Positions 4,530-22,494 of a DNA stretch of 64,000 nt are shown piece after piece (within the stretch, counting starts at the first letter, position 1; every line of letters begins with the position of its first letter). The DNA is from Ensifer oleiphilus (GTDB lineage Bacteria; Pseudomonadota; Alphaproteobacteria; Rhizobiales; Rhizobiaceae): contig NZ_JABWDU010000011.1 in the NCBI RefSeq assembly GCF_013371465.1, forward strand, positions 62,001-126,000. Reading direction: 5' to 3'. Under the pieces are notes generated by a model that saw only the letters and a program-made list of their open reading frames with translations, searched no databases and was not told where the DNA came from. Made by a program: the position numbers and the translations under genes.

Positions 4530-5101
4530 TCAGTGCCAAAACGGTGGGCCACCGGCGCGGCCATGCATGATGCCGGGACCAAAAGCCAGGCCTGGCAAGC
4601 TTTCCTGCGCCTTGGCCTTCTGCATCTCATCGAGTGTGGCGACGAGTTCGGACGCCGCCTTTTGTACAGCTTCGAATTGCTTCCGGCCCAACTCGCGGAT
4701 TTTGGTCATCTGCGCAAAGTGATCCTCCGTAGTGGCCTCCTTGGGATCATTGCCGGCTACCTCGAACGCAGCTGTCATCGCCCCGGTCGCGTCCTTCAGG
4801 GCGTGGCGTATTTGCTCCAGGCGGCTTCCTGCTCCGGCTTGATGGCAAGATCGGCCTTGAGAGCATCGACCCGCGCGGGATCGGCGAAGGTCTGCCCACC
4901 GCCCATCATTCCGTGCATCATACCGGGGGCCATTCGGCCGCCCATCATCGATCGCATCATTTCGGGACCCATGCCGCCTGGTCCGTGCATGAACATCGGA
5001 CCGAAGCCGCCGGGGCCATAACCGTTCGATTGCGCGTAGGCCCATCCGCCAGCGATTAACATCGCGGCAAGACCGCCAAAAACAACAGTTCTCTTCTTCA
5101 T
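4530..5101 (-). pseudogene. Met-rich Spy/CpxP-like periplasmic protein, split by one frameshift
   Basis: Translation starts at ATG 5101 after GGAGA and gives a signal peptide (MKKRTVVFGGLAAMLIAGGW, cleavage near AYA-QS). A Gly/Met-rich tract with repeated MMGG and MHG motifs follows (about residues 25-65), then the start of a helical domain (ADLAIKPEQEAAWSKYA) that stops at about 4796. The helical domain continues in another frame from near 4805 (HALKDATGAMTAAFEV to GGPPFWH at 4530), so one insertion or deletion splits an otherwise normal ~190-residue protein. The Met-rich tract suggests binding of copper or a similar metal in the periplasm. It is divergent from the truncated response regulator at 5283, an arrangement typical of envelope- or metal-stress pairs. 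A sequencing indel is the alternative explanation. Confidence 0.72.
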
Positions 5102-5282
5102 GTCTTTCTCCATCTTGAGGCAACAGTCAGCTTCATTGCTGGGCGCATTCAATCCGGCGGATGTCACTGAACTTTTTCGGCTCCCGCCAATATTGTGACA
5201 ATCTGTGACGAGAACGGCCGGTGGCACAATCAGGCACAACAATTTCGAGACGAAAGGCGCCGGTCTGGGCTACAAAACTCTC

Positions 5283-5414
5283 ATGAACGCCGTGCCCCAC
5301 ATCCTTTTCGTCGATGACCACCGCGAGATCCGCGATCTGGTATCGCGCGCGCTAGCCCGGGAGGGCTATCGCGTCAGCACGGCAGCCGACGGGCGTGCGA
5401 TGCGCAAGACGCTG
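5283..5414 (+). pseudogene. OmpR-family response regulator, truncated after receiver N-terminus
   Basis: From ATG 5283 the frame reads a receiver-domain start: ILFVDDHREIRDLVSRALAR followed by EGYRVSTAADGRAM. It resembles the intact OmpR-type regulator at 60261-60995 (DDDREIRELV, PDGRHM). After the Leu codon ending at 5414 the similarity stops abruptly, before the phospho-acceptor aspartate. The rest of the receiver and the DNA-binding domain are missing. The breakpoint probably marks the edge of the inserted or recombined segment that carries the CBASS locus. The fragment is divergent from the Spy-like gene, which it may once have controlled. Confidence 0.7.
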
Positions 5415-5749
5415 GTTTACGGAGAGCGGCGTCCAGCCATCCAAAAAAACAATCGCGTTTGCTATTCAAAGTTCCCGGGCTCTCCAAGGTACCGGGGACA
5501 TCCGATAGTTGTTATCGATTAAACGCAACCAAGGCGCTTCATAGGCCCGTCCGAAAGTCGTGAGGGTAGTCAACGCCAGGCCATAGTGGCTCATCCACCA
5601 CAGTGCGTTGTTTAGGTGCCCGACTCCACTTTGGCTGCGATACCATTGCCTCCTTGCAAAATGTTCGCCGGGGGAGCGTCGCTGCCGCATCAAAGTCAAG
5701 CCGCTGACGGTGTTGCCAGCGATCTCGAATCCCCACGGCGTCGATCGGG
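5415..5749. other. junction region between truncated regulator and CBASS operon
   Basis: There is no confident gene here. On the minus strand a 95-codon frame (5753 to 5466) begins at a TTG that overlaps the TGA of the Cap5 gene, so it could be read by translational coupling. Its product is not recognisable; it has an aromatic stretch (NNALWWMSHYGLAL). It may be the end of an element boundary rather than a gene. Confidence 0.3.
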
Positions 5750-6877
5750 TCAACTAATATGGAGGGCAGAAACGAAGCCTCCCAATTTCCGGTTCTGGTC
5801 AAAAACATGGAGCTGTAGATCGGCCTTCGGCATCCAGACACGGCCCACTTCAACTGCCGCCGAGACAGGCAAAGCGGGGAAAACGTGGATGGATGCCCCT
5901 TCTCCATGCGCTGTTTTTATCATATCGAACAGCCGCCGAAGATCACTCCGAAAGCGGGATAGATCGGCGGGGCTGCGCATGATGTCATTATGTGGGGACT
6001 TCGCGGTCAACGACCAAATCGAAGTCTCGTCGCCAAGCACTGACGTAACCCGGTCCTGGGAAATGGAAGCACTCAGGGCAAGGATAAGCGCAACGGTAGG
6101 ACGGATCTCGCCCGGTGTTTCCGTCTTGAACTCGACCGAAGGCGTGTCATTTTGCCATTTCCACGTGGCAGGTTCTCGATGGCGTTGGTGAATCTCGGCG
6201 GGCAGAATATCGCAAAGCTGTCTTCCCAATTCTATCAAAAGCGGCTGCGGTGCCAGTGCAAATACGCTTGCATGGGTGATCTGCTGTCGTTCGATCCGGC
6301 CCCTGATCTTGTCGGCAAACAGCCGTTGAAGGTTGGTCTGCTGAACCTGCCAATACTGTTCGTCGGTGTCGTCGAGCGAGAGGCCGAGCATTTCGAGATC
6401 AATTGTTTCAAATGATGCCGGCGAACGCTCCGGCAGCATCGACGCAAATATGTCCTCTCTCGCCACGAGCGCTTCGTTTTTGCCGATGTTGGCTCCGAAA
6501 CGGATGACATGAGAAGCGCGATCCGGCTGGATACCACTCGCCAGGCGGACTCTCCGCTCGTGCTCCTCCTTCATAAGGACCAGAAGTTCCTCAGGATGGT
6601 CGTCCGGCGCTTCATTGTCGATCAGTCGATGGCACTTGGCGCAGAGAAGCATGAGGTTGGTGATGTCTCTGGCGAGAAGTGCGGATCTTGTCGGATGACC
6701 ACGGGCTCCTTCAGGCGAGTCGGCAACGATGTGGGCGACAAAGCCAAACATCTTGTCCTCCTTGCCAGAGAGGAGGTCACCAATGAGCTCGCAGTTGCAA
6801 CCGCGAAACTGGCAACGGCCTGCCGCACGTGCCCACAGCGCGCGCTGGACCTTCTCGGGAATCCTCGATTTTGCCAT
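5750..6877 (-). CDS. cap5: CBASS effector Cap5: HNH nuclease fused to SAVED domain
   Basis: Third gene of the CBASS operon and its killing arm. The N-terminus is an HNH nuclease with zinc-knuckle cysteines (C22, C27, C79, C82), His49 in VAHIVAD, Asn74 in DITNLMLLC and His83 in CAKCH. From about residue 170 to the end (375) the sequence fits a SAVED domain (LILALSAS, IHVFPALPVSAAVEVGR), the sensor for cyclic oligonucleotides. In characterised Cap5 proteins the ligand made by the partner CD-NTase drives assembly and turns on unspecific DNA degradation, causing abortive infection. The ATG directly abuts the stop of the E2-like gene, so translation is coupled. All key nuclease residues are present and the protein looks active. 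Cap5 proteins studied with CdnG enzymes respond to 3',2'-cGAMP; that ligand is an inference here. Confidence 0.9.
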   Translation of the reverse strand: MAKSRIPEKVQRALWARAAGRCQFRGCNCELIGDLLSGKEDKMFGFVAHIVADSPEGARGHPTRSALLARDITNLMLLCAKCHRLIDNEAPDDHPEELLVLMKEEHERRVRLASGIQPDRASHVIRFGANIGKNEALVAREDIFASMLPERSPASFETIDLEMLGLSLDDTDEQYWQVQQTNLQRLFADKIRGRIERQQITHASVFALAPQPLLIELGRQLCDILPAEIHQRHREPATWKWQNDTPSVEFKTETPGEIRPTVALILALSASISQDRVTSVLGDETSIWSLTAKSPHNDIMRSPADLSRFRSDLRRLFDMIKTAHGEGASIHVFPALPVSAAVEVGRVWMPKADLQLHVFDQNRKLGGFVSALHIS

Positions 6878-7366
6878 TCAAACTGCCCTCCGAACTGGTG
6901 CGTGCCGCTGCAGCCGGCTCCGACTGACACGCTGCTCCACATCGCGATGCTCTGGATGCTCTCCCCCGCCTCGCCACTCGCCGTCGATCAGCCAATCCTC
7001 GAAATAGAAGAGCCAGAGCGACGTCCACGGAATGATGGTCTGATCGAGCCTCATCCAGGGCTGCCACTCATATGTGCGTGGCAAATAGAGACAGAGGCGG
7101 GTAGGCTTCTGGTCGTATACATGCGGAAGGTCATTTCCACCGGAGAGCATCAGCAGATCAGGATTGTCGAGAAACACTCTCGGCGAGCGATTGACCGCAA
7201 ATTCCAACCGAGCATCATAGATGCGCGAAAGCGGCGTGGGTGACGATTTATAGTGCCAGCTGAAATGTCCTGATCCGAGTTCACCATCCCCGACACACAG
7301 CGGGCTCTTCGTCAGTAGAAGAAACTGCTGCGCGGGGGTCAGTGGCTTCGGATCGGAAAAACGCAT
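6878..7366 (-). CDS. cap2: CBASS E2-like protein Cap2 (short type II)
   Basis: A 162-residue protein between the CD-NTase and Cap5 genes, 5 bases after the first and directly abutting the second. It has the pattern of the stand-alone E2-like Cap2 of short type II CBASS: LPHVYDQ (about residues 80-86), the likely catalytic cysteine in RLCLYLP (Cys92), then the conserved tail IIPWTSLWLFYFEDWL and GEWRGGGEHPE. There is no E1/ThiF domain and no JAB peptidase gene nearby, so this is the short form. In this family the E2-like protein attaches the CD-NTase C-terminus to targets and raises its activity. The last about 20 residues (VEQRVSRSRLQRHAPVRR) are Arg-rich. Confidence 0.82.
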   Translation of the reverse strand: MRFSDPKPLTPAQQFLLLTKSPLCVGDGELGSGHFSWHYKSSPTPLSRIYDARLEFAVNRSPRVFLDNPDLLMLSGGNDLPHVYDQKPTRLCLYLPRTYEWQPWMRLDQTIIPWTSLWLFYFEDWLIDGEWRGGGEHPEHRDVEQRVSRSRLQRHAPVRRAV

Positions 7367-7371
7367 GGCGG

Positions 7372-8568
7372 CTATCTTCCAAAAAACGTGTTGGCGCGAA
7401 CGGGGGTGACGGTGGCCGTGGTGATACCTGTCACGAGGCCGATGCGGGGTGCGATGCCAAGAGTGCCCTTCTGACGAGAGGTCGAGATGTCATCGGTAAT
7501 GGAATCTATTACTGCCTTGGCCGGGGCGGAGCCGAAGGCGTCGCCGAGCTGTCGCTTCAGGCCATCAAGCCCTTCCACATCCTTCAGTCTGCTGATGTCG
7601 GCCAGAGCACGGGTATGCCAAGTGAAAAATATCTCGGCGCGCTTGGGATCACCGTTCCACTTTTCGGAGAAATTCTCCCCCTTCGTCGTCTCATTCCAGA
7701 TGAACCATTGCATCTGGCCATCAACGCGGCACGTCTCGATGAAGTCGGGCATGTGCCGGATGACGTCGAAGAGCAGATCCAGTTCAGACTCGTAGATGAA
7801 GGTCCTGACGCAGTACTCGTAACTCTGGGACGCCAACGTCGTCACGAGAACTGAAATCGGCGACAGGGATATATCGATCTCGTTGACGGCGATGAAGACA
7901 TCCCGGTGGCGCTTGAGTATCTGGACGACCCTCTGCAACAGGCCCTTGAAATGAACCTGCTCCGGAAAGGGTTCAATGTCTGCACGGGCGCGATCCTGAG
8001 TATGCAAGCTTTTCGTCACCCGGAAACGCGGCGCAAGCTTCACGCGCTCAAGGAACAATGCCTTGTAGCCCTTCGGATTTGACGGCTTCCAGATCTTGAG
8101 TGCCCGATCGGGGACAAGTTCACCGCCCATATGGCAGCTCCGGTTTGGAATGGACGGGGTGATGTCCATATGGAATTCGTTGGCGTAGACAAGCCGCCAG
8201 CAGCGCGCCATCTCTACCAGAAGAGGCTTGTAATGGCCGTTGGCTTTCAACCGGTCGCCAATCGCTTTCTTCAGTGCAGCCGGCTCGACCCAATGTCCGA
8301 GGTTTGGCGCATGGGCTACCAGATCGACGTCATGTTCATTGCTTCCGATCGGCTTGACGGTCGTCCCGATAGCAGTCGATCCCTGGAGGAAAATTCCCAT
8401 TGCCTTGAGCAATGGATCCTCCGCATCCGCCAGCCACCCGCCGACCCCATCGTAACGCTCCTTCGCGAGTTCCGCCTGACTCGGTGCAATTTCGAGAGTA
8501 GCGCACATCCGATCAAGAGCGCCGATGAGCATTCCGTCCCGCATAACAAGTCGATGATCGTGAAACAT
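7372..8568 (-). CDS. CBASS CD-NTase (cGAS/DncV-like nucleotidyltransferase)
   Basis: First gene of the CBASS operon: the sensor enzyme that makes a cyclic oligonucleotide on phage infection. Pol-beta-type active-site residues are in place: the GS motif (QGSTAIGTTVKP, Gly63-Ser64), the paired acids in EHDVDLV (Asp80, Asp82) and the third acid in HMDITPSI (Asp135). Length (398 aa) is normal for the family. The pairing with a short E2 and an HNH-SAVED effector suggests the CdnG clade and 3',2'-cGAMP, but the clade was not tested. AGGAGG lies 5 bases before ATG 8568. The protein ends NTFFGR, with glycine as next-to-last residue; C-terminal residues matter because Cap2 enzymes conjugate this end. 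Confidence 0.9.
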   Translation of the reverse strand: MFHDHRLVMRDGMLIGALDRMCATLEIAPSQAELAKERYDGVGGWLADAEDPLLKAMGIFLQGSTAIGTTVKPIGSNEHDVDLVAHAPNLGHWVEPAALKKAIGDRLKANGHYKPLLVEMARCWRLVYANEFHMDITPSIPNRSCHMGGELVPDRALKIWKPSNPKGYKALFLERVKLAPRFRVTKSLHTQDRARADIEPFPEQVHFKGLLQRVVQILKRHRDVFIAVNEIDISLSPISVLVTTLASQSYEYCVRTFIYESELDLLFDVIRHMPDFIETCRVDGQMQWFIWNETTKGENFSEKWNGDPKRAEIFFTWHTRALADISRLKDVEGLDGLKRQLGDAFGSAPAKAVIDSITDDISTSRQKGTLGIAPRIGLVTGITTATVTPVRANTFFGR

Positions 8569-8620
8569 GCATTCCTCCTGCGCCCGAAAAGGGATCTGCT
8601 CGTAAGATTTGCTCGTCTAA

Positions 8621-8642
8621 TTTCGTACAGCTAAATCGAACG
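8621..8642. promoter_or_regulatory. putative CapH operator, copy 1
   Basis: This 22-bp element begins TTTCGTACAG and ends CGAACG. It matches copy 2 at 8671-8692 at 18 of 22 positions in the same orientation. It has an internal TTCG...CGAA dyad with an 11-bp centre. It covers the predicted -10 of the CD-NTase promoter. The two copies start exactly 50 bp apart. Confidence 0.6.
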
Positions 8643-8656
8643 CTTGCCATCGTCAA
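8628..8656 (-). promoter_or_regulatory. predicted promoter of the CBASS operon
   Basis: On the minus strand TTGACG (8656-8651) is followed after 17 bp by TAGCTG (8633-8628). The -35 is good and the -10 poor, as expected of a promoter kept low. The -10 lies inside operator copy 1, so repressor binding would block it. Confidence 0.4.
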
Positions 8657-8671
8657 GCTCTGTGCTATATT
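8644..8671 (+). promoter_or_regulatory. predicted promoter of capH-capP
   Basis: TTGCCA (8644-8649), a 16-bp spacer and TATATT (8666-8671) form a good sigma-70-type promoter on the plus strand. Operator copy 2 begins at the last base of the -10 and covers the expected start point. This fits autorepression by CapH. Confidence 0.5.
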
Positions 8672-8692
8672 TTTGTACAGATTAACCGAACG
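8671..8692. promoter_or_regulatory. putative CapH operator, copy 2
   Basis: Second copy of the 22-bp element, starting TTTTGTACAG and ending CGAACG. It differs from copy 1 at 4 positions. It sits over the predicted transcription start of capH. Confidence 0.6.
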
Positions 8693-8744
8693 GCGCGGCA
8701 CGCAGGTGCACGCGCCTTCAGTGATTCAAGGGAGTAATTCGAAC

Positions 8745-9065
8745 ATGTCTTTGGCTGCCAAGCTCAAAGAACTCAGGGGCAAAAACCGTCAATCCCTGCA
8801 GGAGGTCGCGGATGCCATTGGAGCGTCCAAGACACATATCTATGATCTGGAGACTGGTCGCAGCACCAACCCCTCAATTGAACTTCTGACCAAGCTCGCC
8901 ACCCATTTTCGCGTTGCCATCGCGGATCTTGTTGGAGAGAACCCAGAGGGAAAAGACGAAGAGCCTGGTCTTGTTGCGATGTACAGGGATCTCAAATCTC
9001 TGGCACCGCAAGACCGTGAAACAATCCAGATGCTGATGGACCGGCTGAAACCCAAGGGAAAGTAA
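8745..9065 (+). CDS. capH: CapH-like XRE-family repressor of CBASS
   Basis: Small DNA-binding protein (106 aa) divergent from the CBASS operon. Residues about 5-62 form an XRE helix-turn-helix (SLQEVADAIGASKTHIYDLE, then GRSTNPSIELLTKLA). The remaining about 40 residues are a short helical tail that may dimerise. AGGGAG precedes the ATG at 8745. Together with the downstream ImmA/IrrE-like protease it matches CapH-CapP modules. In those systems CapH represses the CBASS promoter and CapP cleaves CapH after DNA damage, raising CBASS expression. The stop codon directly abuts the capP start. Operator candidates lie at 8621-8642 and 8671-8692. Confidence 0.82.
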   Translation: MSLAAKLKELRGKNRQSLQEVADAIGASKTHIYDLETGRSTNPSIELLTKLATHFRVAIADLVGENPEGKDEEPGLVAMYRDLKSLAPQDRETIQMLMDRLKPKGK

Positions 9066-9971
9066 ATGGACATCTTGCGGATGGATCTAGCCGACACGGG
9101 GTCGCCTGAAGGGCTCGTCAGCCTGATCCTAAAGCATGAACCAAATCTTCCGCTTCCTGTACCGATCGAGGAGTTGGCGCTCCAGCTCGAGATTGAGGAA
9201 ATTGCCGAGTTGCAAACGGAAGGTTTTGAAGGCGGCTTGATCACCGACACGGTACGGAGCCGCGGAATTATACTCGTCAGAAAGGGGCTGAACCAGCCGC
9301 GTCGCCGTTTTACCATTGGCCACGAGCTCGGTCACTTCCTGATTGCCAACCACATCCCGGATAAGGACGGTCAGTTCCTGTGCTCAAGGGAAGATCTCCG
9401 GGCACTTTCCGCGAAGGAAGGCAACCGGCGGGCGAAAATGGAAGTCGAAGCGAACCGCTTCTCTTCCCTCATCCTGATGCCGCCCCCGAAACTGCGCGAC
9501 GCCTTCAAGAAGCATCCCTCGCCAAGCCTTGAACATGTATTCGAGTTGGCGGACCAATTTGATGTCAGCAAAGAAGCCATGGCGCGGGCCTATGCCGAGT
9601 ATCACCCGGAAGCGTTGGCATTCATTGTCGTCAAGGATGAGAAGGTTGGGCGGGTTTATCACAATCGAAAGCGCTTTCCTTTCGTTGTTGCAAGCCGCAA
9701 CAAGTCGGTGCCTCAAGGCTCAACGTTTTACCGACGAGACCTCCAGATCGGCATTCCAAGCGAAATCGAAAGCCGGCTTGCCGATCTGTGGATCGACGTA
9801 CCCCGAGGGCAGCGCGCTCCGACCCTCATCGAACAGGTGTGCCTTCAGAGGAACGGCTTTGCCTTGATCATGCTCTGGCATGAAAGCCCGGAGGAGGAGG
9901 ATGAAGAAAACGAAGACATGACCACGCGCGACCGCTGGCGTGCCCAACAGGAACGATATCGCAGGGATTGA
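9066..9971 (+). CDS. capP: CapP-like ImmA/IrrE-family zinc metalloprotease
   Basis: A 301-residue protein starting at the base after the capH stop. The zinc-peptidase motif HELGH is at residues 86-90 and a conserved acidic helix (EVEANRFSSLILMP, residues 126-139) supplies the likely third ligand and the typical LLMP strand. This is the M78/COG2856 family, which cleaves partner HTH repressors. The C-terminal half (about 165-290) is a regulatory-type region with a KDEKVGRVYHNRKRFPF stretch. It ends in an acidic tail (EEEDEENED) and a basic terminus. In this context it should inactivate CapH and so release CBASS expression. The active-site motif is intact. Confidence 0.85.
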   Translation: MDILRMDLADTGSPEGLVSLILKHEPNLPLPVPIEELALQLEIEEIAELQTEGFEGGLITDTVRSRGIILVRKGLNQPRRRFTIGHELGHFLIANHIPDKDGQFLCSREDLRALSAKEGNRRAKMEVEANRFSSLILMPPPKLRDAFKKHPSPSLEHVFELADQFDVSKEAMARAYAEYHPEALAFIVVKDEKVGRVYHNRKRFPFVVASRNKSVPQGSTFYRRDLQIGIPSEIESRLADLWIDVPRGQRAPTLIEQVCLQRNGFALIMLWHESPEEEDEENEDMTTRDRWRAQQERYRRD

Positions 9972-9976
9972 TCTTG

Positions 9977-10456
9977 ATGGAAGGCCATAATTTTGAGCGT
10001 CTCAAATCACACATCGTGCCCCTATCGAACTCCATGGCATTCGAGACAGCTCGGCTTGAATGGGACCTGATCGGCGTAGAGATCAGTGAAGAGTTTGATC
10101 AATGTCCCTGCGGTCAGGATATTCTCGAACATTGTTATATTCGAAATCGCCTCAATGGCGCGACGACCTACGTCGGCAATGTCTGCATTAACCGCTTCGT
10201 TGGAATTGACACGGGGAACCTCTTTGAAGGCCTGAAGCGTATTCAAGCGGATCTCTCCGCCAATGCAAACGACGATCTCATCGAGCACGCCTACCGGATG
10301 GGATACCTATTCAACGACAAGGAATATCACTTCCTCAAGCAGACGAGACTTAAACGGAAACTCTCGTCGGCGCAGTCAGCCTGGAAGAAAAAAATTAATC
10401 GACGGATTTTGAATCAGACTATCGTACAGCGAAGGGGCGTTCATCAGTCTCGGTGA
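9977..10456 (+). CDS. unknown small Cys-rich protein, third gene of the capH-capP operon
   Basis: The ATG at 9977 lies 5 bases after the capP stop; an in-frame TTG at 9968 would overlap it. The product (159 aa) has no family I can name. It shows a zinc-ribbon-like pattern, CPCGQ...EHCYI...GNVCI (four cysteines plus histidine between residues about 42 and 72), after a conserved-looking N-terminus (HNFERLKSHIVPLSNS). A basic C-terminal helix follows (RLKRKLSSAQSAWKKKINRR), suggesting nucleic-acid or protein binding. It is transcribed with the CBASS control genes, so it may be a regulator, a DNA-damage link or an added defence component. No signal peptide or membrane segment is present. Confidence 0.7.
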   Translation: MEGHNFERLKSHIVPLSNSMAFETARLEWDLIGVEISEEFDQCPCGQDILEHCYIRNRLNGATTYVGNVCINRFVGIDTGNLFEGLKRIQADLSANANDDLIEHAYRMGYLFNDKEYHFLKQTRLKRKLSSAQSAWKKKINRRILNQTIVQRRGVHQSR

Positions 10457-10592
10457 TTTACTGTCGCAATGCATCAGTGGTGCATGTTCAAACAACACGC
10501 TCAAAAATGTCTTGCGATTTCGAACGAAATGCACGTGAATATTACCATATCAACAGATTCGATTTTTGCAGCATTGAGGAGTACTATCGGAG

Positions 10593-11093
10593 ATGACGGT
10601 GAAACTGACTGATCTACGTGATGACATCGACGCAATAATTCTCGATCTTCGCCGGGAGCGAAACGATGGCGAAATTCCAATTGCTGACGCGCTCGCCCGC
10701 ATTCGCTCGGAGTTGAATGGCAAGATCTCCGAGGCAGCAGATCAGTTGATCGATCTAACGCTCCGAAAACTGATCCACGATGTGAGCGGCCGGAAGCGCC
10801 TCAGCCTGGCGATGGTAGGCCAAACGAGTTTATTCGGCCATTACTCCGGAATACCCGCGATGATAACTACCGGACGTGGTAGGAAGCGGGACACGACAAA
10901 AGCGACCTTCCAGGAAGCAGATGCTTGGCTGTCTGCGCGCGAAAAAGAAGATACAGACGTTCGAACAAAAAACGAGAAATTCAAACAAATGGTCGAAGAG
11001 CTGCGTCCGTTTATTCAGGCGCCGACTGATACCCTTGAAGATGCCGCGCGTCTCAAATTTAAGCTGCAGACAGTTCACGCAAGTCAACTGTAA
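10593..11093 (+). CDS. hypothetical protein, 166 aa
   Basis: I do not recognise this protein. It begins at ATG 10593 after GGAG (ACTATCGGAGATG, a close site). It is predicted mostly helical and charged, with a central segment (MVGQTSLFGHYSGIPAMITT) followed by a basic RGRKRDTTKATF stretch. It lies 136 bases after the Cys-rich gene on the same strand and has its own AT-rich leader, so it may be a separate unit of the defence island. No enzyme motif, membrane segment or signal peptide is visible. Confidence 0.55.
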   Translation: MTVKLTDLRDDIDAIILDLRRERNDGEIPIADALARIRSELNGKISEAADQLIDLTLRKLIHDVSGRKRLSLAMVGQTSLFGHYSGIPAMITTGRGRKRDTTKATFQEADAWLSAREKEDTDVRTKNEKFKQMVEELRPFIQAPTDTLEDAARLKFKLQTVHASQL

Positions 11094-15864: not shown

Positions 15865-17076
15865 CTAGGCGCTTCGAGCAACCACTGGATTCGCCCGCAA
15901 CAGAGCCATCAGCACCGGTCCGAGCGAAAACTCCCCTCGCCGCGCCTTGTCCGTCAGATTGCGCAGATATCCGCCGGCCGAGTTGATGTGCCCTGCCCTT
16001 TCGAGAATACAGGCCATTGTCGCAGCCGCATTTTCCGGCCCCATCGCCTCGCAGGCGTCCTGGTAGGCGCTTGGACTGACGCCCAGCATCGATCGGACCA
16101 CCACCGCAGCCGCCATTAGTTCTCGCCAGCTCGAAATAGCCCCATCCGGCCCATACATCGCGATCTCCGGGCAGGCTTGCAGCACCATGCCCAACGGGAA
16201 CGCCTTGATCGGCTCGCGCTTCGGCTGCGGTTTGACCTCAGGTTTCGCCCCGCGCTCTTTTTCAGAGCTAGGTTCAAGTTCACGGGTGGATTCGGTGTTT
16301 GAATTCTGTATGTGACGCTCATTTGGAGCATCATTGGAGCTCATATTTTCTGAATTCATCTGCATTTCCAGCAGATTGAGGACTTCGCTCCGCAATATTT
16401 CCATTTCGTCGAGGATTGCGACTAGGTCACCGATGACCGGCGTGCGCGGAATACGACCGACGAGCTCCACATACATCGCCTCTATCGCTCCCCAGTTACC
16501 GGAAGCGCCCTCCTCCATCGCAGCGGAGATGAGCTTGCGAACATCTCGGCGGCAGATGGTGAGCGCCTCTTTGGTCCGACGGAACTGCGCGCGATCGGCA
16601 GCGACCCGTTGGGCCATCTGCGCGAGTTCTTCAGCACGGGCGAGCAAGGGCGACAGATCGAAGCCATAGGCGTCCTCGACCTCGCCTGCCCGATCCTTCC
16701 GGGCGAAGCGTTTGCCGTTGGCGCTATCCTTGCGCACGATCAGGCCAGCGTTGACGAGTGCAGCCAGTTGACGGCGCAGCGTGGCGCTAGCGATCCCATG
16801 CGCCCGCACAGAGAGCTGTGCGTTGGACGGGAATACGATCATGGCCCGATCTTGCGCCAGCTCCGCTTCCGGATAGAACGTCAAAAGGGCATCGAGAACG
16901 GCGAGCGCGCGATCCTGGATGCCGAGCAGCGCCCTCGCCTCAGAGGCGTCGCGGAACACTTTCCACTTCTCGACTGATTTGCCTGGTTTGATTTCAGCTG
17001 AGTTCAGCTGCCTTCTCACCAAGGCAAGTGTCATCGGCCGCCGCCCGAATGGCGTCGTCACACTTCCAACCTGCAT
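15865..17076 (-). CDS. repC: RepC replication initiator
   Basis: The initiator protein of the repABC replicon (403 aa, usual length). The N-terminus (VTTPFGRRPMTLALVRRQLN) and the DNA-binding region with the ALLTFYPEAEL and IVFPSNAQLS motifs (about residues 60-90) are characteristic. The C-terminal domain reads PLGMVLQACPEI...ISSWRELMAAAVVVRSMLGV. A variable Glu/Pro-rich linker lies near residues 235-290, coded by an AT-rich stretch that probably contains oriV. RepC binds there to start replication, and its level sets copy number. It lies 181 bases after repB, and that gap holds the antisense ctRNA. Confidence 0.95.
   Translation of the reverse strand: MQVGSVTTPFGRRPMTLALVRRQLNSAEIKPGKSVEKWKVFRDASEARALLGIQDRALAVLDALLTFYPEAELAQDRAMIVFPSNAQLSVRAHGIASATLRRQLAALVNAGLIVRKDSANGKRFARKDRAGEVEDAYGFDLSPLLARAEELAQMAQRVAADRAQFRRTKEALTICRRDVRKLISAAMEEGASGNWGAIEAMYVELVGRIPRTPVIGDLVAILDEMEILRSEVLNLLEMQMNSENMSSNDAPNERHIQNSNTESTRELEPSSEKERGAKPEVKPQPKREPIKAFPLGMVLQACPEIAMYGPDGAISSWRELMAAAVVVRSMLGVSPSAYQDACEAMGPENAAATMACILERAGHINSAGGYLRNLTDKARRGEFSLGPVLMALLRANPVVARSA
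16255..16375. other. candidate oriV (AT-rich stretch within repC)
   Basis: This stretch is clearly more AT-rich than the rest of repC and encodes a low-complexity linker. In studied repABC plasmids the origin lies in an AT-rich segment inside repC, so this is the likely origin. The call rests on position and composition only. Confidence 0.45.
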
Positions 17077-17257: not shown

Positions 17258-18250
17258 TTAGCGGGGATTCTTCTGCATGAACTGATCGTGCAGAGTTTCG
17301 ATCTGGGTTGCCACGTACTCCACAAATCCATTGGGAACCGCCTTATTGAAGGCCAGTTTCGAGCCCGATTTTCCGTGGCTAACCTGTCCGAGCACTAGAC
17401 CGTGCGCAACGAGCTGCACAGCTTCAACGGACAAAAGTGCTGGGTCTCGCTCGCCGGAGAGCGCCTCGAGGACGCGCGCAAAGCGAGCGTTGCTATCACC
17501 CCTGCGCGTTTCATCCTTGCCGAGCACCTTCTTGGCAGCTTCAAACGGCGCGGCGTGGGCTGACCATTTCGCTTCGAAATCCACCCATCGACGGCGGCCG
17601 ACTTCGGGTGCTGGCCCAATTTCCTGAACGACCTCGCGCGGCAAAGCGGTTGCAAGCCGTATCATCTCAGAAACATGCGATTTGCTCGTACTTAGAGATT
17701 TGCAGATGATATCGCGACCATAGCCGGCAGCCTCCTGCGATTGGGCGAAGAGGCACCTTTCAATGAATGACAGGTCGTTCCGATTGCTGTTTTCCTCCCC
17801 CTGTAGAACGATGGCTTCTTCGTCACTCAGGTCTCTCGCGATCGCCTTGAACTTGATGCCGAGAAGCTTCGCTGCAGCAAGCCGCCGACGGCCGAAGACG
17901 ATCTGAAACGATTTGACGTTCCCGTCAACTGAGCGCACGAGGCCAGGTGTGCTTTGCCCATGCTCACGCATTGACTGCATCAATTCGGCAAGGTTCCCCG
18001 CCTCATAGGCGGAGCCGAAGCGATCGGGGATCGCGGAATCGAGAATGTCTGCCGGCTCGATCTCGATGACCTGGCCGCCGTCTCTCAGCAACCGATCAGC
18101 AAGCTCGCTGCGTTCCTGGATCTGGCGCACGCCAGCTGCAACCTTCATCAAATGCGGCGAGGTTGATCGTTGTACTCCGCCCCTGTCAACTGCGCCGTCG
18201 AGCTGGCCCAGAACGTTGGCGAAGAGGCCCTTGGAATCTTTCCGGCTCAT
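17258..18250 (-). CDS. repB: RepB, ParB-family centromere-binding protein
   Basis: A 330-residue ParB-like partition protein that binds parS. The start ATG 18250 overlaps the repA stop (ATGA). The ParB N-terminal domain is clear (LAELMQSMREHGQSTPGLVR, then FQIVFGRRRLAAAKLLGIKF and QGEENSNRNDLSFIERCLFA). It is followed by a helix-turn-helix (GYGRDIICKSLSTSKSHVSE) and a C-terminal dimerisation region. It should load at the GTTCCCCGCGGGGAAC sites at 19613, 20182 and 20325 and act with RepA for partition and autoregulation. Confidence 0.95.
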   Translation of the reverse strand: MSRKDSKGLFANVLGQLDGAVDRGGVQRSTSPHLMKVAAGVRQIQERSELADRLLRDGGQVIEIEPADILDSAIPDRFGSAYEAGNLAELMQSMREHGQSTPGLVRSVDGNVKSFQIVFGRRRLAAAKLLGIKFKAIARDLSDEEAIVLQGEENSNRNDLSFIERCLFAQSQEAAGYGRDIICKSLSTSKSHVSEMIRLATALPREVVQEIGPAPEVGRRRWVDFEAKWSAHAAPFEAAKKVLGKDETRRGDSNARFARVLEALSGERDPALLSVEAVQLVAHGLVLGQVSHGKSGSKLAFNKAVPNGFVEYVATQIETLHDQFMQKNPR

Positions 18251-19422
18251 TCTCTCCCCCAAGCCTTCCAGAACAGGTTTTCCAGTTCCGCATTGGCGGC
18301 GTTTATGGATTCGATTGCGCGATCGTAGGTTTTCGGTGCGGAGAATCGCGTCCGCTGCACCTCGTAGAGGCTCTGCTTCCAAGTCAGCGCGTCTGCGACT
18401 GCGGTCGACTTAATAACAGAATTCAGCAACAGATCTTCACCAAACACCTGCCGCATCAGCGCTGACATGTTTGCCTGCGGATGATCGTTGGGCTCAAATT
18501 TGGTAACAAGAAATTTGGCGAAATCCCATTGAGCGGCTGTTCCGACTTCGTCGAGGATCTGCATATAAGACGCCGCCAGCTCCAGAAACTTCGCAGTGGA
18601 ATCGACGTCCAGCATATGTGCGGGGACTGGAATGACGACACCCGTCGCTGCCGTGAGCGACGAAAGCGTCAGAAAGTTCAGCGATGGCGCGGAGTCCATG
18701 AGGATAAAGTCATAGTTGTCGGCGACCTGCTCGAGCGCCTGAGAAACGCGTAGCAAGAAACCTGTGCCTCCAGCCCGACGCATCTCGAGCGCAACGGCGG
18801 TTTCGAATTCGGTCAGTTCAAGGCCGGCGCAGATCACGTCGAAGCCGACGATGTGCGTCTGGTGGATAATCGAACTGGTCGGAATGGGGTCGTCGAAGCG
18901 GATGGCGGAATAAAGGGTGTCCCCTCCCCGGTAGTCGAAGTCGGGAAGGTTGCCGTGAAGTGCGGTGAGCGATGCCTGCGGATCAAGATCCACGGCAAGC
19001 ACACGGTACCCGCGCAGTGCCAGGTAGTGACCTAGGTGAATTGTCGTGGAGGTCTTGCTAGAGCCGCCCTTAAAGTTGGTGACGGCAATGATCTGGCACT
19101 GTTCGTCGCCGGTGCGGCGCGGGTTCATCCATCTTTTACGGCCGTTAGACGCAAGTGCGAGACGCAGCTCAAGGACTTGCTCCAGCGTATAAAGGCGTCG
19201 ACCGTTGGAGATCTCTGGGGACGGTCCCTGCTCCTTGGCGGCAACCTGGCGGATATACGCTTCCGTAACGTCCAAAAGGGCAGCGACCTCCGTCGACGTG
19301 AACTTCCGCATACTGCGCCGCGCGTCCGGCGGAAACTGCGCCATGCTCAGATTGTTCAACGCCAGCTCAAGCTTGCTGGAAAAGTTCTCCATGAAGGAGA
19401 GGCTGCTGAGATGTCGCGTCAT
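18247..19422 (-). CDS. repA: RepA, ParA-family partition ATPase
   Basis: A 391-residue ParA-type ATPase that moves plasmid copies apart and represses the repABC operon. An N-terminal MerR-like DNA-binding region (about residues 40-95, RKFTSTEVAALLDVTEAYIR) precedes the deviant Walker A motif KGGSSKTS (118-125), Walker A' (DLDPQASLTAL) and Walker B (FILMDSAPSLNFLTL). All are intact. It is the first gene of the operon; an alternative in-frame start lies 10 codons in. repB overlaps its stop codon. Confidence 0.95.
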   Translation of the reverse strand: MTRHLSSLSFMENFSSKLELALNNLSMAQFPPDARRSMRKFTSTEVAALLDVTEAYIRQVAAKEQGPSPEISNGRRLYTLEQVLELRLALASNGRKRWMNPRRTGDEQCQIIAVTNFKGGSSKTSTTIHLGHYLALRGYRVLAVDLDPQASLTALHGNLPDFDYRGGDTLYSAIRFDDPIPTSSIIHQTHIVGFDVICAGLELTEFETAVALEMRRAGGTGFLLRVSQALEQVADNYDFILMDSAPSLNFLTLSSLTAATGVVIPVPAHMLDVDSTAKFLELAASYMQILDEVGTAAQWDFAKFLVTKFEPNDHPQANMSALMRQVFGEDLLLNSVIKSTAVADALTWKQSLYEVQRTRFSAPKTYDRAIESINAANAELENLFWKAWGRE

Positions 19423-20765: not shown

Positions 20766-22494
20766 TCAAGGTGGCAGGCCTGCCTTGAGGAGCCCTTGCC
20801 GGAAAAGTTCCAGTTGCTCCGGACGCTCCAGCAGCAGCCCTTGGCTGATGAAGTTGTCGATCGAGAAGTCGGGACACAGCCCAAGCAGCAGACGTTTTGC
20901 CTTCTCGGTGGCGATAGGATCCCCTGTTTGCGCGTAGCAGGCGACTAGGCGCGCGCAAGTGAATGGGCCTGGGTTCGGTAGTTCTTCTAGGGCGGCAGCG
21001 GCTTCCGCATAGCGGCCAGTAAGATAGAGGGCGTTGCCAAGGGCGGCGCTATACCATCGTGGCGGAAACGGATTTAACCGGAAACCTTCCTCGATCCATT
21101 CCAGCGCTTCATCGAGCTTGCCGCGTCGGGCCAGTAGGCCGCCCATTTGCACAAGCGTGTTGGCGTCGTTGGGGCTGATAGGCTCGACGATAGTGTCGCT
21201 CACCCAACTCAAATTCACGTCGGTTAACGTGGATGAGTGCCAGCAATCGCTGGCAACCGCTCTCGCCCTCGTCAAGGGTTACCGCCCTACGCGCCAGGGC
21301 CAGCGCTTCGTCAAGAACGCCGGATGGTGAGTTGGCGTAGCCGTGGAGCGCTATTTTCGCCAACGCGAGGTGGGAAAGTGCCAACCCGAACTGCGGATCT
21401 CGCTCCAGTGCTGCGTTGAACATCTCGAACGCTTGTTGATTGTCGTACTTGTCATAGCTGCGCATATGCACAAGGCCGCGCAAATGGTACTCGTAGGCCG
21501 CTAGGCTGCTTGTCGGTTTTCGCAGTGCCTGGCGAACATCCTCGCACTCTATGTGTCCCACGAGGGTGGCGACAATCGTCCGAGTTAGTTGATCCTGCAC
21601 GGCGAATAGATCTTGGACATCTCGGTCGTACCGTTCAGACCACAGCTGCTTTCCGGAAACCGCTTCGACAAGCTGAGCCGCAATCCTTAGTCGCTCGCCT
21701 GCGCGCCGAACACTGCCCAGAACAAGATAAGCAACGCCCAACTTCTTGCTGATCTCATTCAGGTCCGAGTGCCGGTCGCGAAAGCGGAATGACGAGGTAG
21801 CATTGATGACAGTGAGCGAACGGAACCGCGCTAGTCCGCGTATGATGTCCTCAGTAATCCCGTCGCTGAAAATGTCATGGTGCTCCGATCCGCCCAAATT
21901 TTCAAACGGCAGAACAGCAATAGATGTCGCCCTAGCCAGCGAGCCTATCGAGGGACTGGCTGCAGATGCGTTCGCCCAATGCCACACGTGGAGGGGACGG
22001 GCTATGTTCTTGAGCGATATCTCGCCGCCGTCGACAAATTCCAAGTCGCGAGCTGACGTAAGCTGTCGGTGAACGAGGTCAGAAATACATATGCCCCCAG
22101 GCTCCGCCGCCGCCTCCAGGCGGGCTGCGACGTTTACACCATCGCCAAGAACATCATCACCTTCGACAACCACATCGGCGAGATTGATACCGATGCGCAA
22201 GACAAGCGGGAAATCAACACTCTGGTTTTGCCGACGGGCTTCAAGCTTCGATTGAATTGATATCGCACAATCCACCGCCTCCACGGCCGAGCTGAAGACG
22301 ACCAGGGAGCCGTCTCCCATCAACTTGACAATCCGCCCGCCACGGGCAGCAGCACTGGGTTGAAGCACTGAGGATTGCAGCCGTCTTATAGACTGAACTG
22401 TTCGCGTTTCGTTGGCTTCCATGAGGCGCGCATAACCGACGACGTCAGTCGCCATAATGGCCGCCAGCCGCCGTTCAACGCGTTGCTTCGCCAT
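20766..22494 (-). pseudogene. class III adenylate cyclase-TPR protein, frameshifted
   Basis: The first part (22494 to about 21190) encodes a class III nucleotide cyclase domain (AAIMATDVVGYARLMEANE, LMGDGSLVVFSSAVEAVDCA, LGDGVNVAARLEA). A FlgO/TolB-like region (IAVLPFENLGGSE) and the first TPR repeats follow. Near 21190 the frame shifts: the upstream frame loses homology after LGERHYRRA. The next frame resumes at SPNDANTLVQMGGLLARRGK and runs through further TPRs to 20766. One indel separates two good halves, so this is either a recent pseudogene or a sequencing error. If whole it would be a cytoplasmic cAMP-forming enzyme of about 575 residues, a type common in rhizobia. The cyclase domain itself is intact and might still work. 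Confidence 0.8.

What the first reader, a model, noticed from the sequence alone, without database searches (positions are those of the whole stretch)
5750..9971. Complete short type II CBASS with CapH-CapP control module on a repABC plasmid
CD-NTase, E2-like Cap2 and HNH-SAVED Cap5 form a tight minus-strand operon, and an XRE repressor with an ImmA/IrrE-like protease is divergent. All catalytic motifs are readable (GS/DxD, Cys92, HNH, HELGH). Family knowledge: CapH-CapP controls CBASS after DNA damage, and Cap5 degrades DNA on ligand binding. Inference: the unit is a functional, DNA-damage-inducible defence system on a plasmid.
Basis: partly seen in the sequence, partly recalled or inferred. 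Interest (0 to 1): 0.8.

Follow-up and report, generated by a model that had tools for sequence, protein, structure and literature searches.

The report
CBASS phage-defence cassette on rhizobial plasmid

Summary
Profiles place all five genes: HNH-SAVED Cap5 (5750-6877), E2-only Cap2 (6878-7366), CdnG-like CD-NTase (7372-8568), CapH (8745-9065), CapP (9066-9971); repABC genes lie 5-9 kb beyond. The core is an ordinary CBASS type II (short), the class to which Fatma 2021 (PMC8568899, passages) assigns its CdnG-Cap5 systems. Cap5 keeps the five AsCap5 residues checked, so 3',2'-cGAMP is the likely signal. Additions: (1) a sixth gene, ORF6 (9977-10456), lies five bases behind capP in 12 of 12 close cassettes (frameshifted or altered at its end in two), has no Pfam, NCBIfam or PADLOC family, and also sits beside two other ubiquitin-like operons that have their own HTH/ImmA-IrrE pairs; (2) 26 of 26 E2-partnered cyclases end in Gly plus 1-4 residues, while three of four comparison loci with an E1 end exactly at Gly and one fits neither, which suggests E1-free tail processing; (3) two TGTAC-centred boxes lie at the divergent promoters. 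Function, inducibility and ORF6's role are inferred, not shown. New member of a known kind; the open point is ORF6.

The parts
5750..6877 (-). Cap5: HNH endonuclease + SAVED sensor, effector
   Evidence: PADLOC 2.5e-164; Pfam SAVED 2.4e-50; nearest solved chain AsCap5 7rwk, E=8.5e-108; D223, R234, R314, K351, D353 align with AsCap5 D220, R231, R310, K347, D349 (counted by hand; roles from passages of PMC8568899)
6878..7366 (-). E2-only Cap2, catalytic Cys92; no E1 domain
   Evidence: PADLOC E2 2e-54; matches the E2 of 8hsb_B, E=5.6e-24, Cys aligned
7372..8568 (-). CdnG-like CD-NTase, QGS/DVD/HMDI; C-terminus NTFFG-R
   Evidence: PADLOC 7.7e-111; SmCdnG 8hsb_A E=8.3e-61; tail comparison
8569..8744 (.). 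Divergent promoter region
   Evidence: 12-sequence alignment
8621..8634 (-). GTAC box 2, where the -10 of the CBASS promoter is expected (TTGACG at 8656-8651)
   Evidence: operator role inferred
8671..8684 (-). GTAC box 1, directly at the end of the capH -10
   Evidence: operator role inferred
8644..8671 (+). capH promoter-like site TTGCCA-16-TATATT
   Evidence: 10 of 12 consensus matches; the number of such sites in 5500-10700 (4) is not clearly above chance (mean 2.5, sd 1.9)
8745..9065 (+). CapH, HTH repressor
   Evidence: PADLOC capH 3.7e-25; Pfam HTH_31 4.7e-10
9066..9971 (+). CapP, M78/ImmA-IrrE metallopeptidase, HELGH 86-90, Cys106
   Evidence: PADLOC capP 4.3e-59; 7t5t_A 9.2e-8 with HELGH and Cys aligned
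9977..10456 (+). ORF6, 159 aa, CxC...C...GNxC zinc-ribbon-like protein of unknown function, 5 bases behind capP
   Evidence: present in 12 of 12 close cassettes with the same 5-base gap; dN/dS 0.06-0.13 in the 3 of 9 comparisons where it could be computed; C43, C45, C53, C70 invariant in alignments of 9 and 14 rows; model pLDDT 88.9
15865..17076 (-). RepC, plasmid replication
   Evidence: NCBIfam RepABC_RepC 3.1e-170
17258..18382 (-). RepB, partitioning
   Evidence: Pfam RepB 1.7e-11
18247..19422 (-). RepA, ParA-type ATPase
   Evidence: Pfam AAA_31 2.4e-32; repA/repB/repC annotated under the match in NZ_CP013108

Best explanation
A plasmid-borne abortive-infection system, CBASS type II (short), in a six-gene divergent cassette. 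At rest CapH sits on the 176-base divergent promoter region and keeps both arms low. When single-stranded DNA appears (phage replication or DNA damage), CapP cleaves CapH and the CBASS operon rises. The E2, working without an E1, takes the Gly397-Arg398 tail of the cyclase, releases the arginine, and links the cyclase through Gly397 to a lysine, probably of another cyclase, which switches it on. The cyclase makes a cyclic dinucleotide, most likely 3',2'-cGAMP, which docks in the SAVED domain of Cap5 and turns on its HNH nuclease; the cell's DNA is degraded before phage are released. ORF6, probably made from the capH-capP transcript, is an accessory of unknown action. Shown here: gene content, catalytic residues, conservation, tail pattern. 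From the literature on relatives: ssDNA-triggered CapH cleavage, cyclase-cyclase conjugation proposed for a short system, 3',2'-cGAMP activation of Cap5. Inferred: that this copy does these things, the release of Arg398 by the E2, and the operator positions.
For: Profiles and solved relatives for five proteins. Cap5 activation residues conserved 5 of 5 checked. Six-gene order in the window and 11 further distinct loci (E2 cut short in one, L023). dN/dS 0.00-0.13 for the six genes wherever dS could be computed against nine relatives; for many pairs dS is near or at saturation. Cyclase tail = Gly + 1-4 residues in 26 of 26 E2-partnered loci, in 25 of 25 of which, window aside, no E1 or JAB match was found; Gly-terminal in the 3 of 4 comparison loci where E1 and JAB genes directly follow the cyclase. 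Two boxes TAATCTGTACAAAA/TTAGCTGTACGAAA in the divergent region.
Against: No activity was measured. The fourth comparison locus (L070), with ThiF and JAB genes elsewhere in the locus, ends in ...RFAV and fits neither tail class; two of the three that fit (L067, L068) are near-copies. The 12 R tails belong to one close clade. The boxes are direct repeats without an inverted repeat, and other 12-base stretches of the intergenic region are as conserved, so operator status is weak. CapP is remote from the solved CapP (E=9e-8) and its model failed (pLDDT 38). One relative (L023) has lost the end of its E2 but keeps the cyclase.
Confidence: 0.85

Rival explanations
1. The CBASS core is intact but CapH-CapP-ORF6 acts as a separate regulator (plasmid maintenance or SOS-like switch) that merely neighbours it.
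For: A related CapH-CapP pair (CapP 54%, CapH 62% identity) stands divergent to a small gene and a TIR gene in BTAi1, so the module is not bound to CBASS; a more distant HTH/ImmA-IrrE pair is divergent to a multiubiquitin-E1 operon in L034.
Against: In 12 of 12 close cassettes the pair is divergent to cdnG across an alignable 169-176 base region; passages of PMC13373217 describe the module as controller of the adjacent immune operon.
Confidence: 0.08
2. The E2 does not process the cyclase; the residue after Gly is irrelevant and activation is by direct ligand or phage-protein sensing.
For: Fatma 2021 obtained product from purified AsCdnG, described as possibly leaky activity, without the third gene product (PMC8568899 passages).
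Against: F-[FYA]-G followed by 1-4 residues in 26 of 26 E2-partnered cyclases although the residues after Gly vary; the LC[LVI] cysteine motif of the E2 is present in 25 of 25 relatives.
Confidence: 0.1
3. ORF6 is a plasmid gene that hitch-hikes and has nothing to do with defence.
For: Relatives occur in plasmids and viral contigs without a recognised CapP, in two viral loci beside clear helicase/primase-type genes and in two more beside weaker ones, of 8 scanned; 0 of 14 more distant E2-only loci have it.
Against: 12 of 12 close cassettes keep it exactly 5 bases behind capP (window by coordinates), whereas the next gene (ORF7) is in 5 of 12; also beside HTH/ImmA-IrrE-regulated operons in L034 and L035.
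Confidence: 0.4

Closest known systems
CdnG-Cap5 CBASS type II (short) of Asticcacaulis sp. (Fatma 2021, PMC8568899; passages seen)
   Same: CdnG + Cap5, a possible third conserved gene of unknown function noted; Cap5 residues D220, R231, R310, K347, D349 identical here in alignment
   Different: Here the capH-capP-ORF6 arm is attached; whether the Asticcacaulis locus has one was not checked. No cyclase-to-cyclase comparison with AsCdnG was made
Serratia marcescens SmCdnG-E2 (8hsb; Yan 2024, cited in PMC12804361; the paper itself not held, content recalled)
   Same: Separate E2 chain, aligned Cys, cyclase with one residue after the conserved Gly (alignment ends at 406 of 407)
   Different: Effector and control genes not compared
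CapH-CapP control module (Lau 2022, not held; described in passages of PMC13373217 and PMC10904395)
   Same: HTH repressor plus M78 peptidase with HELGH and a Cys aligned with that of 7t5t, divergent to a CBASS operon
   Different: CapP only remotely similar to the solved one; ORF6 added behind capP
Bacillus cereus type II CBASS with Cap2 (E1-E2), Cap3 and upstream CapH-CapP (PMC11153139, passages)
   Same: CBASS type II with CapH-CapP genes
   Different: Long form with E1 and deconjugase; cyclase ends in Ala

Membership tests
CBASS type II (short) | CD-NTase with G[S]...DxD | tested here: met
CBASS type II (short) | E2-like Cap2 without E1, and no Cap3 | tested here: met
   162-aa E2 only; no E1 or JAB among the genes scanned around it
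CBASS type II (short) | Cyclic-oligonucleotide-activated effector | tested here: met
   HNH-SAVED Cap5 by profile and conserved activation residues; activation itself not testable
CBASS type II (short) | Phage defence | not testable with these tools
   needs a plaque assay
CapH-CapP module | HTH repressor followed by M78 peptidase, divergent to the immune operon | tested here: met
CapH-CapP module | HExxH and zinc-binding Cys | tested here: met
   HELGH 86-90 and Cys106 aligned with 7t5t; that the Cys binds zinc as a switch is recalled, from no call
CapH-CapP module | ssDNA-triggered cleavage of CapH | not testable with these tools
   needs purified proteins
repABC replicon | repA, repB, repC side by side | tested here: met
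Known family for ORF6 | Match to a curated family or solved fold | tested here: not met
   no Pfam, NCBIfam or PADLOC hit at E<=0.01 and none for the window member at E<=1 in Pfam, best PHROG E=0.026, no PDB sequence at E<=1 or fold match at E<=0.001

The most novel reading that the evidence does not exclude
ORF6 is a third, unrecognised part of some CapH-CapP-type control modules: a small zinc protein, with relatives encoded beside replication genes in some viral contigs, that links the state of replicating DNA (for example ssDNA or a replisome part) to CapP or to the ubiquitin-like conjugation step, and so serves several E1/E2-based immune operons.
Probability: 0.2. Interest if true: 0.6.

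Novelty: new member of a known kind. Interest (0 to 1): 0.32.

Why it matters
It documents a compact, plasmid-spread form of E2-only CBASS with a DNA-damage-type switch in rhizobia; of the 8 papers that my one search for CBASS with Rhizobium listed, none is about it by its title. The tail contrast (Gly-X in E2-only, Gly end in three of four E1-bearing loci) suggests a simple sequence rule that bears on how an E2 can conjugate without an E1. ORF6 is a concrete, testable unknown in a well-studied pathway.

Tried and rejected
Tried and led nowhere: CapP structure model (pLDDT 38, five-row alignment). Viral-contig scans with CapP and with the cyclase (none confirmed). ORF6 fold search: no PDB match at E<=0.001; the one viral match at that level is an uncharacterised protein. 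ORF6 in the phages collection: no match.

Rejected: that L062 shows capP-ORF6 linkage; its 139-aa neighbour resembles part of an annotated ImmA/IrrE protein but gave no Pfam match. That ORF6 is specific to CBASS: 0 of 14 distant E2-only loci have it, and it occurs elsewhere. That ORF7 (10593-11093) belongs to the unit: 5 of 12. That the intergenic boxes are proven operators.

Rows dropped: L001, L006, L007, L008, L009 as copies of L014, window, window, L002, L004 before the tail count. L012 and L013 have no E2 hit and were not counted with the 26. The 26 are the 12 close cassettes (all tail R, one clade) and 14 distant ones with eight other tails; they are not 26 independent events. L023's E2 is cut short and L026's cyclase is annotated as two genes; both were kept in the count. 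E2 in L019, L021 and L030 rests on tblastn, no gene being annotated there. Of the 12 plasmid records with cyclase identity of 77% or more, 8 were fetched. In the conservation scan, L022 and L025 were left out as near-copies. dN/dS was run on 9 of the 11 close relatives (not L015, L023). Viral ORF6 loci: neighbours of 8 of 15 were scanned.
Full report
What was checked. PADLOC profiles place each of them: Cap5 2.5e-164, E2 2e-54, cyclase 7.7e-111, CapH 3.7e-25, CapP 4.3e-59. Pfam adds SAVED, SMODS, HTH and M78 but has no model hitting the E2, and its HNH models stay under their cut-offs. Solved relatives: SmCdnG-E2 8hsb for the cyclase and E2, AsCap5 7rwk for Cap5, CapP 7t5t for the M78 domain; CapH matches several HTH proteins, 7t5u among them, which I recall to be a CapH. 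Catalytic residues: QGS 62-64, DVD 80-82, HMDI 133-136; Cys92; HELGH 86-90. The plasmids with similar DNA are mostly rhizobial.

How common. The cyclase was found in 7 of 394 genomes of the family at E<=1e-20, own genome included, and in 4 of 397 of the order at E<=1e-40, own included. In plasmids, 131 records hold a relative, 12 of them at 77% identity or more, these 12 named Agrobacterium, Allorhizobium, Rhizobium or Sinorhizobium.

The unit has six genes. In the window and 11 distinct further loci (L002-L004, L014-L017, L022-L025) the order cap5, E2, cdnG, divergent capH, capP, ORF6 holds, with the E2 cut short in L023. ORF6 (159 aa) starts five bases after the capP stop in the window and in 11 of 11 of these loci; in L002 and L015 its C-terminus departs from the others. 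Its neighbour ORF7 is in 5 of these 12, and in the fetched annotation the further genes on both sides vary between loci. Nei-Gojobori dN/dS between the window and nine of the eleven relatives is between 0.00 and 0.13 for the six genes where dS could be computed; for ORF6 that is 3 of 9, the rest being saturated. Among 14 more distant E2-only loci (cyclase 30-54% identity) none has ORF6; six of those carry an annotated phospholipase or patatin effector instead of Cap5.

ORF6 itself. No Pfam, NCBIfam or PADLOC family; best PHROG E=0.026. Relatives: 84 plasmid records at E<=1e-5, 15 viral-contig loci, 3 of 385 class genomes and 3 of 398 phylum genomes at E<=1e-15, own included in both, none in the phages collection. 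C43, C45, C53 and C70 are invariant in both alignments (9 and 14 rows). The model is confident (pLDDT 88.9: N-terminal helices, three strands with the cysteines in or next to them, C-terminal helices) but matches no solved fold at E<=0.001; the top viral match, E=6.7e-5, is an uncharacterised protein. In L034 (74% identity) ORF6 ends an operon annotated as multiubiquitin, ThiF E1 and DUF6527 genes that is divergent to an HTH plus ImmA/IrrE pair; in L035 (68%) it follows, after about 320 bases, an HTH plus ImmA/IrrE pair that is divergent to a metallohydrolase and an E2-ThiF-JAB protein. The ImmA/IrrE proteins of L034 and L035 are only 23-25% identical to the window's CapP, so calling them CapP is inference. 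Elsewhere it is near helicase, Shedu or methylase genes. Of 8 viral loci whose neighbours I scanned, two have clear helicase/primase-type neighbours (L055, L058), two weaker ones (L049, Toprim under the cut-off; L059, a BT4734-like domain that I recall from primase-like proteins), two others (nuclease, subtilase) and two no Pfam match. I read ORF6 as an accessory that several mobile elements use, with the link to CapP-type control suggestive only.

The cyclase tail. SmCdnG has one residue after the glycine of NTFYG (match to 406 of 407). The window's ends NTFFG-R. Of 26 E2-partnered cyclases (window included), 26 have F-[FYA]-G followed by R (12, the close cassettes), D (6), K (2), or E, Q, ER, DPR, GPR, RDCG (one each). 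In the 25 loci other than the window no E1 or JAB match was found, four of them held only as 4-kb stretches whose longer versions L063-L066 also had none. Of four loci fetched for comparison with E1 (ThiF) and JAB genes, the three in which these directly follow the cyclase end at ...LG (two of these, L067 and L068, are near-copies); the fourth, L070, where they lie elsewhere in the locus, ends ...RFAV (annotation). [quoted passage not shown] Yan 2024, which I recall as describing E2-driven processing of the cyclase C-terminus, is not held. My inference is that the peptide bond after the glycine supplies the energy that an E1 would otherwise spend.

The signal. AsCap5 D220, R310, K347 and D349 (chosen for mutation studies) and R231 (marked in the ligand pocket; PMC8568899 passages) correspond to D223, R314, K351, D353 and R234 here, counted by hand on the alignment. 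AsCap5 and LlCap5 respond to 3',2'-cGAMP about 10,000-fold better than to the other two cGAMP isomers tested (same passages). I predict 3',2'-cGAMP.

The switch. The divergent region is 169-176 bases in 12 loci. A capH promoter-like site TTGCCA-16-TATATT lies at 8644-8671, and TTGACG (8656-8651) is identical in all 12. Two direct copies of a 25-base repeat, 80% alike, 50 bases apart (8618-8642, 8668-8692), each hold a TGTAC box; in the window the pattern made from them matches only these two places exactly, with two further one-mismatch places elsewhere, the exact matches being by construction. Box positions fit repression of both promoters, but other stretches are as conserved. Passages of PMC13373217 and PMC10904395 describe ssDNA-activated CapP cleaving CapH. 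A related CapH-CapP pair (CapP 54%, CapH 62%) stands divergent to a small gene and a TIR gene in BTAi1, so the control arm is exchangeable.

Verdict. An ordinary, well-preserved CBASS of a known class with a known control module, on a plasmid lineage, plus one unexplained conserved gene. I file it as a new member of a known kind. Papers: PMC8568899, PMC11153139, PMC13373217, PMC10904395 and PMC12804361 seen as passages only (PMC12355090 passages also seen, not used); Lau 2022 and Yan 2024 not held, recalled. I make no claim that the combination with CapH-CapP is unpublished: my searches cannot reach the key papers.

Noticed in passing
L023 (pTiFPH-AT4), about 7201-7560: The E2 departs from its relatives after 'WTSLW' and ends early, while the other five genes match over their length.
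   Followed up: partly
L033 (Ensifer canadensis pT173a), 5798-6480: ORF6 beside a match to only residues 245-300 of CapP, next to an IS21 element: a remnant of the same cassette.
   Followed up: partly
L014 versus window: Identity is mosaic: cdnG, E2, capH and capP 95-99%, but Cap5 and ORF6 86-87% with higher dS, as if the middle was exchanged by recombination.
   Followed up: no
L018 (Bradyrhizobium pBs1S1b), 5241-5849: A gene annotated as sigma-70-family factor lies between an ImmA/IrrE gene with a hypothetical gene and an E2-only CBASS with a phospholipase effector.
   Followed up: no
L071 (BTAi1 pBBta01), 4580-6888: A relative of this CapH-CapP pair stands divergent to a small gene and a TIR-domain gene, with more TIR and caspase genes further on.
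   Followed up: no
window 21109-22494: A protein with an adenylate/guanylate cyclase catalytic domain lies beyond the repABC genes.
   Followed up: no
window 10593-11093: ORF7, unknown, follows ORF6 in 5 of 12 cassettes.
   Followed up: partly
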